DNA of 64,000 nucleotides from Trichocoleus desertorum NBK24. Its GTDB lineage: Bacteria; Cyanobacteriota; Cyanobacteriia; FACHB-46. Every line of letters starts with the position of its first letter. The first letter of the stretch is position 1. Below, in pieces: positions 35,702 through 47,140 of the stretch. A model generated the notes under the pieces. It was not told the origin of the DNA. It was given only the letters and a program-made list of their open reading frames with translations, and did not search any database. The stretch covers positions 2,370,628-2,434,627 of the forward strand of contig NZ_CP116619.1 of the NCBI RefSeq assembly GCF_030409055.1, read 5' to 3'. The position numbers were made by a program, and so were the translations under genes.

Positions 35702-36043
35702 ATGGCTAACCTCACGCCTCCTCCTAAGTCCAACTCAGATGCAGAAGCTCAAGCCCTTCCTGGCCCCTTCCGTTGTTTGAGCGGTGCTTTGATTGCAGGT
35801 AGCCTTGCCTTTGCTGGCTACAAACTCACGATGTCGATCGCTGCCACCTTTGCAGCCAAACCCATTCACTCCGATAGCACTGTCGTGCTCAATATTGCTT
35901 CCGCCGTCCGAACCCTAGTGGTTGGAATCGTAGCTTTAGGTGCAGGCGTATTTGGCTTCGCGGCTTTGGGTCTTTTGGCATTGGGTGTGCAAGTCACGCT
36001 CCAACGATTCAGCCAACCTCATCCTCCCGCCGATCCTTCCTAG
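35702..36043 (+). CDS. DUF3082 family membrane protein
   Basis: 113 residues with two or three hydrophobic helices (ALIAGSLAFAGYKLTMSIAATFA, then AVRTLVVGIVALGAGVFGFAALGLLALG in parts). This matches the small cyanobacterial family DUF3082 often found after ispE. Function unknown. It follows ispE by 30 bp in the same direction and is probably the last gene of the rsmA-ispE operon. Confidence 0.85.
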   Translation: MANLTPPPKSNSDAEAQALPGPFRCLSGALIAGSLAFAGYKLTMSIAATFAAKPIHSDSTVVLNIASAVRTLVVGIVALGAGVFGFAALGLLALGVQVTLQRFSQPHPPADPS

Positions 36044-36135: not shown

Positions 36136-36182
36136 ACTAGCTAATCTTCTGATTTTTTTGTAATTCTTATCATTCCCTAAAC
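36136..36182. other. AT-rich stretch next to the DnaA-box array
   Basis: About 45 bp with a T-run and very few G or C, directly before the first box. In a bacterial origin such a stretch would serve as the unwinding element; that role is inferred from position. Confidence 0.4.
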
Positions 36183-36256
36183 TTTTCCCCACTTTTTCCA
36201 CAAGCTTTCCACAGAAACAGCCTAGGTTTTCCACAGGTTAGTCAGAGTTTTCCACA
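36183..36256 (+). promoter_or_regulatory. Phased array of DnaA-box-like sites (candidate oriC)
   Basis: TTTTCCACA, the cyanobacterial DnaA-box form, is exact at 36194-36202, 36227-36235 and 36248-36256. One-mismatch copies are at 36183-36191 (TTTTCCCCA) and 36205-36213 (CTTTCCACA). All five share orientation, with steps of 11, 11, 22 and 21 bp, about one or two helical turns. No dnaA or dnaN is in the window, and gene strands do not clearly diverge here, so an origin is possible but not proven. Confidence 0.6.
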
Positions 36257-36693
36257 GGCAAAATGAGCGAGATCCCACCTTTGCGCCGATTTGGGGATTT
36301 TTCAGTTAAACCCATCCAGAAATGAGAGTGGCTGGATTTTTGTAAAGGAAAGTAACGAGAATGACCCCTAAACACTGATTCTCTGGTAAATCTTTTTTTT
36401 ATCTGAAGGCGATCGCAACATTTCGAAGCATTGACAACCCTCCCCCCTAATAGCGCAAAATGATGCGACCCACTTAAATGCAACGCGGAGTTCCGATGAT
36501 CGTAGTTGGAGCCCGTAGCCGTTGCTGAGCGCGCTAGCTTAACCTGACAGCTGATGTTTTCCCATCAGATTGTGGGTGAAAGGTGTTACCGCAGGCTAGA
36601 TCGGCGCTACTTTTTGCTGTAACCCTTTTGCTGTCATCCAAGCGCTAAGCCGAATTCTATCCAGTTCACCTTGGTTCACGAGTAGAGGTTCTA
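36257..36693. other. Non-coding remainder between the box array and DUF2811 gene
   Basis: No gene-sized frame. Includes an A/T-run near 36388 (AATC followed by eight or nine T) and a HIP1 copy near 36410. No other DnaA-box-like site was found here on either strand. Confidence 0.4.
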
Positions 36694-36894
36694 ATGAACG
36701 CAACCGTCAGCATCCTGGCAGAAATTCCTGAAGCCCTTCACGAATCTCTTTCCTACTACCTTGAATCCCATCCGGATTGGGATCAAGACCGTGTCTTTGC
36801 GGCAGCATTGTCGCTGTTTTTACTTCAAAACGGAGATGGCGATCGCCGAGCCGCCCGTGTGTATCTTGATACTTTATTTAAACATCCTGTTTAA
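36694..36894 (+). CDS. DUF2811 family small protein
   Basis: 66 residues, ATG with GAGGTT upstream. The pattern (ILAEIPEALHESLSYYLESHPDWDQDRVFAAALSLFLLQ, in parts) matches the small DUF2811 family of cyanobacteria. The chain looks helical, with a ribbon-helix-helix-like strand and helix order, but no DNA-binding role is established. It stands alone ~440 bp after the DnaA-box array. Confidence 0.85.
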   Translation: MNATVSILAEIPEALHESLSYYLESHPDWDQDRVFAAALSLFLLQNGDGDRRAARVYLDTLFKHPV

Positions 36895-45620: not shown

Positions 45621-47140
45621 TAATGTGGAAAACAGAGTGTTGGGGCACACAGTCCTGGGAAAGCCAGCGTCGTTACCCTCAAAGTATCAAGGGCTATGCA
45701 GCGAATAGCATGGTTGTTAGTATCCGCCACATAGAGGCAGTTATCCCAAACGCTCAGACCAGAGGGTTCTGAAAAGGCACTGGTGATCCCTGGCCCATCT
45801 TGATGACCAGATTTCCCGTGGCCTAAACGGGTTTGGCAGAGCTGAGTGCTAAGGTCAATTTGCTTAATTTTGTGGTTGTAGGTATCCGCAACCCATAAAT
45901 TTTCTTGAGCGTAGGCAATTCCTAAACAGTGCTGTAGCCGCACCTCTTCGCCGATGCCATCTACGTCACCAAAATCAAACAACTGACCGCTACCACAGAC
46001 AGTCTTGACTTGATAGTTTGCTCCTAGACCAACTGCCCGGATAGAACTGCTCTCGCTATCTGCAATATAAAGCTCTTGCCCATCGGTCGTGATGCCACTG
46101 GGCTGAGCAAAAGCTGCTTGGGTTGGCTCTCCATCTACACCCGCTTCTGCACCAGTGCCCGCATAGGTTTGGATGAATTCAGTAGGCAGGTGCATGGCCC
46201 AGATTTGGTGTGAGCCTGCCATCGCGATGAAGAGGCGATCGCCCACCAACACCAAATCCCGAGGAGAATTTAACGGCGTTTCTAAAGCCAACCCTTGCTG
46301 AGGTCGAATTAAACGGTTTTGGATGCCTGTCCCAGCGATCGTCTCTACCCGTTGCTGTCTCAGGTCAACACGACGCAGGACATGGTTTTCGGTATCGGCT
46401 ACATAGAGAATTGACTGGTCTGAATCCAGGCTCATTCCTTGGGGCGCAAAAAAGTTGGCTTCTGCAAAAGGGCCATCCACTAACCCAGGCTCTCCCGAAC
46501 CGATGACATGTCGCACTTCACCCGTTAGCGTGGTCATGACCAGCCGATGATGTCCTGAGTCAGCCACAAATAACCAAACTTCTGAATCTACCTGACCAAC
46601 TAAAACTTTGCCGGGAAAAGCAAAAGGGCTGCTCAGGGATTGCTGCTGCTTTTCGAGTATGAAACTCAGCTCTTTTAACTGCAGGGTTTCTTGAGTTTGA
46701 AAATTTTGTAATAGTTCATCCAGTAAAGCTTCTAGTCGATCGCGGCTGACTTCTCCGGTTAAAGAATGCCGCACATAGCCAGCAGGGTCGATGATGACTA
46801 AAGTGGGCCAAGCTCGAACCGCGTACTGCTGCCAAACCTCAAAATCGCTATCTACCAGCACTGGGTGAGCAATGTCATAGCGCAAAATTGCTTGGCGAAT
46901 GCTGTCTAGCTCTTGCTCGTTGGTAAATTTAGCAGAGTGAATCCCAATTACGGTCAGGCTGTCTTTGTACTTCTGCTCTAGGTACTTGAGCGTGGGCAAA
47001 ATATGGAGGCAGTTGATGCAGCCATAGGTCCAAAAGTCCAACAAAACAAACCGACCCCGGAGCGATCGCAGCGTCAAAGGATGAGCTGTGTTCAACCAAG
47101 GTCGGTCTTGAGGAAATTCTGGGGCTCTAACGCGGGACAT
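45617..47140 (-). CDS. Thioredoxin-NHL repeat protein (NHLRC2-like)
   Basis: 507 residues. The N-terminal ~150 are thioredoxin-like, with the redox motif YGCINC and the cis-Pro region VRAWPTLVIIDP. Residues ~165-500 are NHL beta-propeller repeats (HHRLVMTTLTGEVRHVIGSGEPG, NHVLRRVDLRQQRVETIAGTG, NHKIKQIDL, NHAIRCIAL). The order matches NHLRC2-type proteins. No signal peptide, so probably cytoplasmic thiol-disulfide chemistry coupled to a protein-binding propeller. Partners unknown. Confidence 0.9.
   Translation of the reverse strand: MSRVRAPEFPQDRPWLNTAHPLTLRSLRGRFVLLDFWTYGCINCLHILPTLKYLEQKYKDSLTVIGIHSAKFTNEQELDSIRQAILRYDIAHPVLVDSDFEVWQQYAVRAWPTLVIIDPAGYVRHSLTGEVSRDRLEALLDELLQNFQTQETLQLKELSFILEKQQQSLSSPFAFPGKVLVGQVDSEVWLFVADSGHHRLVMTTLTGEVRHVIGSGEPGLVDGPFAEANFFAPQGMSLDSDQSILYVADTENHVLRRVDLRQQRVETIAGTGIQNRLIRPQQGLALETPLNSPRDLVLVGDRLFIAMAGSHQIWAMHLPTEFIQTYAGTGAEAGVDGEPTQAAFAQPSGITTDGQELYIADSESSSIRAVGLGANYQVKTVCGSGQLFDFGDVDGIGEEVRLQHCLGIAYAQENLWVADTYNHKIKQIDLSTQLCQTRLGHGKSGHQDGPGITSAFSEPSGLSVWDNCLYVADTNNHAIRCIALDTLRVTTLAFPGLCAPTLCFPHY

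What the first reader, a model, noticed from the sequence alone, without database searches (positions are those of the whole stretch)
36136..36260. Helically phased array of five DnaA-box-like sites beside an AT-rich stretch: candidate replication origin
Three exact copies of TTTTCCACA and two with one mismatch lie within 74 bp, all in the same direction, starting at 36183, 36194, 36205, 36227 and 36248. The steps of 11, 11, 22 and 21 bp are close to one or two turns of B-DNA. Directly before them is a ~45-bp A/T-rich stretch with a long T-run. Elsewhere in the window I noticed only a single complementary copy (TGTGGAAAA at 45625). TTTTCCACA is the known cyanobacterial DnaA box. Origins of many filamentous cyanobacteria are poorly defined and not always next to dnaA or dnaN, so the site could be oriC or a DnaA-titration or control locus.
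Basis: partly seen in the sequence, partly recalled or inferred. Interest (0 to 1): 0.75.

Follow-up and report, generated by a model that had tools for sequence, protein, structure and literature searches.

The report
DnaA-box switch upstream of DUF2811
The row of five DNA sites is not the chromosome's replication origin but part of a control region, shared across cyanobacteria, in front of a small gene of unknown function (DUF2811) that tends to disappear from genomes that have lost the replication starter DnaA, so it points to a little-known job of DnaA in these organisms.

Summary
In detail: five same-direction TTTTCCACA-type boxes at 36183-36256, steps 11, 11, 22, 21 bp, far beyond chance. 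It is not oriC. The same genome has a stronger two-directional cluster (8 exact boxes, DnaA-trio-like TAG repeats) beside dnaA, 226 kb away, and sampled GC skew switches there. The array belongs to the upstream region of DUF2811. The same phased array lies upstream of DUF2811 in 79 of 79 named genomes tested and in 41 of 45 dnaA+ genomes across the class (background 0.3%), although the other flanking genes differ in most. It sits in a conserved block: a fixed AT-rich motif, the boxes, an HLR1 (RpaB)-like site and a sigma-70-like promoter. In two genome samples DUF2811 is lost together with dnaA: 11 of 13 and 36 of 42 dnaA-less genomes lack it or hold a pseudogene, against 2 of 323 and 5 of 211 dnaA+ genomes. 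Genomes without dnaA that keep the gene have lost or decayed boxes. Best reading: a DnaA-responsive promoter of a DnaA-linked protein. DnaA binding and the function of DUF2811 are not shown. No published account was found.

The parts
36157..36170 (+). Conserved AT-rich motif TTTGTAATTCTTAT, 26 bp before the first box
   Evidence: Best match to TTTGTAATTCTTAT within 2 mismatches upstream of DUF2811 in 50 of 80 sequences; spacing to the first box exactly 26 bp in 47 of 80. TTTGYAATTCTTATY occurs in 59 of 255 fetched loci, and those opened are DUF2811 upstream regions. Bound factor unknown.
36183..36191 (+). Box 1, TTTTCCCCA (conserved as a non-consensus box)
   Evidence: column conserved in the 30-sequence alignment
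36194..36202 (+). Box 2, TTTTCCACA
36205..36213 (+). Box 3, CTTTCCACA
36227..36235 (+). Box 4, TTTTCCACA
36248..36256 (+). Box 5, TTTTCCACA
36292..36299 (+). Conserved TGGGGATT block, function unknown
   Evidence: 30-sequence alignment
36339..36356 (+). HLR1-like (RpaB) element TTTGTAAAGGAAAGTAAC, 1 mismatch
   Evidence: Best upstream match within 1 mismatch in 28 of 79 loci and within 2 in 55 of 79; shuffles 0 and 5 of 395
36431..36461 (+). Conserved sigma-70-like promoter: TTGACA (36431-36436), 19 bp, CAAAAT (36456-36461)
   Evidence: TTGACA and the -10 region are conserved in the alignment; conservation stops at about 36470. Not mapped experimentally.
36694..36894 (+). DUF2811 (PF10929) gene, 66 aa
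   Evidence: Pfam E 6.6e-30
35702..36043 (+). DUF3082 (PF11282), upstream neighbour; not part of the element
   Evidence: upstream of DUF2811 in only 7 of 80 loci; kept in 12 of 13 dnaA-less genomes

Best explanation
The array is the DnaA-binding part of a conserved promoter region that controls DUF2811. DnaA fills five helically phased boxes of mixed strength on one face of the DNA. It thereby sets transcription from the TTGACA promoter about 175 bp downstream, together with an RpaB-type light/redox input at the HLR1-like site, so that DUF2811 is made according to the amount or ATP-state of DnaA. DUF2811 probably acts in a DnaA-dependent process, because it is rarely kept when dnaA is lost. 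Shown: anatomy, conservation, linkage to DUF2811 and not to its neighbours, co-loss with dnaA. Inferred: DnaA binding, the sign of regulation, RpaB binding, the action of DUF2811.
For: Array upstream of DUF2811 in 79/79 named loci, 201 of 230 box steps under 60 bp being 11, 21 or 22; in 41/45 dnaA+ genomes against 3/960 background stretches; upstream of several paralogous DUF2811 copies too. The array stays with DUF2811 although ispE/DUF3082 precede it in only 7 of 80 loci. Conserved motif-array-HLR1-promoter order. Co-loss: class sample, DUF2811 absent or pseudogene in 11/13 dnaA-less against 2/323 dnaA+ genomes; order sample 36/42 against 5/211. Control gene DUF3082 kept in 12/13. The four dnaA-less genomes with intact DUF2811 whose upstream region was read have at most one exact box and at most three boxes with up to 1 mismatch. 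Within-genus contrasts g84, g152 and g166 show the same loss.
Against: No DnaA binding or expression data. Six dnaA-less genomes keep an intact DUF2811, so its use does not strictly require DnaA. A few dnaA+ genomes have almost no boxes left (L157, L160 no exact box; f14 has one). The boxes lie about 175-250 bp above the promoter, far for a simple activator or repressor. Fisher p-values ignore shared ancestry; the number of independent losses was not reconstructed on a tree.
Confidence: 0.72

Rival explanations
1. A datA/DARS-like site: the array titrates DnaA or changes its nucleotide state for the whole cell, and lies next to DUF2811 for historical reasons.
For: Phased boxes outside oriC. 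A second recurrent three-box locus exists in this genome in a convergent intergenic where it cannot be a promoter.
Against: The array stays with DUF2811 through changes of neighbours, is embedded in a conserved promoter region, and lies at variable distances from dnaA in closed genomes (about 0.08 to 0.97 of a replichore, read from coordinates). E. coli datA and DARS keep their relative position (PMC5010248, abstract).
Confidence: 0.17
2. The array is oriC or a second active origin.
For: AT-rich motif beside a phased box array; several cyanobacteria replicate from multiple sites (PMC7198777).
Against: Stronger cluster with TAG repeats beside dnaA; skew change point at 2.62 Mb, SSE 414 against 480 with the origin at the array, and the stretches between the two sites keep the left-arm sign; boxes in one direction only; no trio repeats at the array.
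Confidence: 0.03
3. Another protein binds the repeats; DnaA is not involved.
For: No binding data; a conserved AT-rich motif of unknown use adjoins the array and survives in dnaA-less G149.
Against: The box sequence equals the cyanobacterial DnaA box used at oriC (PMC4674748) and at the own oriC; boxes and gene vanish with dnaA.
Confidence: 0.06

Closest known systems
DnaA-regulated intergenic box clusters of Bacillus subtilis (eight regions, Ishikawa 2007, as cited in PMC7198777)
   Same: DnaA boxes in intergenic regions that control neighbouring genes
   Different: Here one element is conserved over the whole cyanobacterial class, the target is an uncharacterised protein, and the target is lost together with dnaA
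E. coli datA, DARS1 and DARS2
   Same: DnaA-box clusters outside oriC
   Different: The array follows one gene, sits in a promoter region and has no fixed place relative to oriC
Cyanobacterial oriC beside dnaN/dnaA (PMC4674748)
   Same: Same box TTTTCCACA, similar 11-12 and 21-bp steps
   Different: One direction only, no DnaA-trio repeats, not at the skew switch
HLR1/RpaB promoters (PMC6331805)
   Same: HLR1-like site upstream of the core promoter
   Different: Combined with a DnaA-box array

Membership tests
Chromosomal origin oriC | Main DnaA-box cluster of the chromosome | tested here: not met
   8 exact boxes at C1:2632867-2633062 against 3 in the array
Chromosomal origin oriC | GC-skew sign switch at the site | tested here: not met
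   Change point at 2.62 Mb, not at 2.407 Mb (44 stretches)
Chromosomal origin oriC | Next to dnaA or dnaN | tested here: not met
   Neighbours ksgA, ispE, DUF3082, DUF2811; dnaA 226 kb away
Chromosomal origin oriC | DnaA-trio repeats next to boxes (unwinding element) | tested here: not met
   TAGTAGTAGTAG precedes the boxes at the dnaA locus; none flanks the array, judged by reading the sequence
Chromosomal origin oriC | Replication starts there in vivo | not testable with these tools
   Needs marker-frequency sequencing
datA/DARS-type control site | DnaA-box cluster outside oriC | tested here: met
datA/DARS-type control site | Conserved position relative to oriC | tested here: not met
   Distance to dnaA varies over most of the replichore in closed genomes (coordinates)
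datA/DARS-type control site | Changes the nucleotide state of DnaA | not testable with these tools
   Biochemical assay needed
DnaA-regulated promoter | Boxes upstream of the same gene across genomes | tested here: met
   79/79 and 41/45
DnaA-regulated promoter | Core promoter downstream of the boxes | tested here: met
   Conserved TTGACA and -10 region; start site not mapped
DnaA-regulated promoter | Boxes depend on the presence of dnaA | tested here: met
   Decayed or absent in four dnaA-less genomes that keep the intact gene and in pseudogene-bearing G355; two further such genomes (G449, G571) were not read
DnaA-regulated promoter | DnaA binds and changes expression | not testable with these tools
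   Needs ChIP, EMSA or a reporter
RpaB (HLR1) promoter | HLR1 direct repeat | tested here: met
   Enriched over shuffles, but with mismatches in most loci; the consensus used was recalled, and PMC6331805 gives example sites only
Ribbon-helix-helix DNA-binding proteins (for DUF2811) | RHH fold | tested here: inconclusive
   Model pLDDT 78, three helices; no significant fold or family match

The most novel reading that the evidence does not exclude
DUF2811 is a cyanobacterial DnaA partner or regulator not described before, made under the control of DnaA itself and of light/redox signalling. It would close a feedback loop on replication initiation, and it would be a conserved reason why oriC-independent cyanobacteria still keep dnaA.
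Probability: 0.33. Interest if true: 0.85.

Novelty: new variant of a known kind. Interest (0 to 1): 0.68.

Why it matters
What DnaA does in cyanobacteria that replicate without it is stated as unclear in PMC7198777. A class-wide DnaA-box promoter in front of a gene that is lost with dnaA gives one defined locus and one 66-residue protein with which to test that question, and with it how cyanobacteria may control DnaA.

Tried and rejected
Rfam scan of the region: no match. DUF2811 against Pfam and PDB sequences: only its own family. First AlphaFold model too weak; second usable, but Foldseek gave nothing below E 1.7 and VIA-align nothing above Z 3.3, so the ribbon-helix-helix guess from the sequence pattern is left open. 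The AT-rich motif was compared by eye with Fur-type and unwinding-element consensus sequences, without a convincing match. Literature: no paper names DUF2811; searches for DnaA binding sites in cyanobacteria outside oriC gave nothing relevant; the library is open-access only.

Full report
Observation. The number of boxes in the window is ordinary; the cluster is not.

Not the origin. The window is C1:2370628-2434627 of a single 5.46-Mb contig. A scan of this genome found 53 exact TTTTCCACA in all. Eight of them lie at C1:2632867-2633062 in both directions, directly upstream of dnaA. There a TAGTAGTAGTAG run adjoins two boxes, a pattern like the DnaA-trios of the unwinding system (own knowledge; PMC8287927 is on that subject but was not opened). 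The array has no such run. GC skew from 44 stretches (about 0.86 Mb) is best split at 2.62 Mb with the other switch near 5.28-0.08 Mb. Putting the origin at the array fits worse (SSE 480 against 414), and the seven stretches between array and dnaA have mean skew -0.0145, like the left arm.

What it belongs to. The next gene, 36694-36894, is DUF2811 (PF10929), 66 aa. In 79 of 79 GTDB loci with enough upstream sequence, a phased array in the direction of the gene lies roughly 250-700 bp upstream of it. These loci were chosen by similarity to this protein, so they lean towards relatives. In a separate set spread over the class, 41 of 45 dnaA+ genomes have at least two such boxes within 110 bp and 34 have at least three, against 3 of 960 background stretches. 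Neighbouring genes differ: ispE or DUF3082 precede DUF2811 in only 7 of 80 loci, and in many genomes DUF3082 lies far away. Some second copies of DUF2811 also have boxes upstream. So the array goes with DUF2811.

Anatomy. An alignment of 30 upstream regions shows ordered blocks: TTTGYAATTCTTAT; boxes, the first kept as TTTTCCCCA; TGGGGATT; an HLR1-like repeat; TTGACA and a -10 region; then no conservation up to the start codon. The first motif is 26 bp from the first box in 47 of 80 sequences and was found at no other kind of place among the loci opened. HLR1 enrichment over shuffles is strong, but the consensus used was recalled from memory and PMC6331805 gives example sites only.

Co-loss with dnaA. 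In the class sample (336 genomes at least 90% complete and at most 5% contaminated) 13 have no credible DnaA. In these, DUF2811 is absent in ten, broken by two stops in one (G355) and intact in two; of 323 dnaA+ genomes two lack it, both drafts of several hundred contigs. The order sample (254 genomes, which overlaps the first) gives 42 dnaA-less genomes: 35 without DUF2811, one pseudogene, six intact; 5 of 211 dnaA+ genomes lack it, all drafts of 90-760 contigs; G396, with a partial DnaA match, was set aside. A genome counts as dnaA-less if it has no TIGR00362 match, or only a sub-cutoff match with E above 1e-20. Some absences were inferred from handles missing in the printed lists. Within genera: g84 six dnaA+ with and two dnaA-less without; g152 three and four; g166 one and one; g147 one dnaA+ with, three dnaA-less of which one is a pseudogene; g88 dnaA+ members keep the gene (array seen in the two read, G327 and G422), whereas dnaA-less G149 keeps the gene without any box. 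The neighbour DUF3082 is kept in 12 of 13, so general erosion does not explain this. Fisher tests give p about 5e-17 and 5e-32 but ignore ancestry; I did not map losses on a tree.

Mechanism. The most likely reading is DnaA-dependent control of DUF2811 with a second input from RpaB. DnaA as a transcription factor is established elsewhere, and its role in oriC-independent cyanobacteria is posed as open in PMC7198777. What DUF2811 does is unknown: no relatives outside its family, a three-helix model of moderate confidence, no fold match. The direction of regulation cannot be inferred.

A second locus. Three exact boxes at 20-22-bp steps recur 3' of guaA or of a CDF transporter gene in several families, at C1:3212290-3212339 here. 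In this genome it lies between converging genes, so it is the better datA/DARS candidate.

Noticed in passing
L004:1791-1840 (C1:3212290-3212339); also L166-L169, L173, L178, L185, L187, L188, L190, L191, L194, L195, L208-L214: Second recurrent box locus: three exact same-direction boxes at 20-22-bp steps, often 3' of guaA or of a CDF transporter gene, convergent intergenic in this genome; candidate titration or DARS-like site. The reversed-pattern control gave no match in any genome.
   Followed up: partly
The genome search (order of G149): dnaA is missing from near-complete genomes in more families than I expected from PMC7198777, including some but not all members of g152 and g166.
   Followed up: partly
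window 36157-36170 and the same place in other DUF2811 loci: TTTGYAATTCTTATY is nearly fixed in sequence and spacing and survives in dnaA-less G149, so its binding factor is probably not DnaA.
   Followed up: partly
L247 (C1:2633001-2653000) and L223 (C1:1990001-2010000): Two stretches with G+C of 36-37% in a genome of about 49%; the first begins at the dnaA locus.
   Followed up: no
L002 (C1:988877-989269): A second Bac_DnaA-like ATPase match (E 7.8e-9, open frame 308 aa) in the same genome.
   Followed up: no
L157, L160 (f31, g44): dnaA+ genomes whose DUF2811 upstream region keeps the layout but has no exact box.
   Followed up: no
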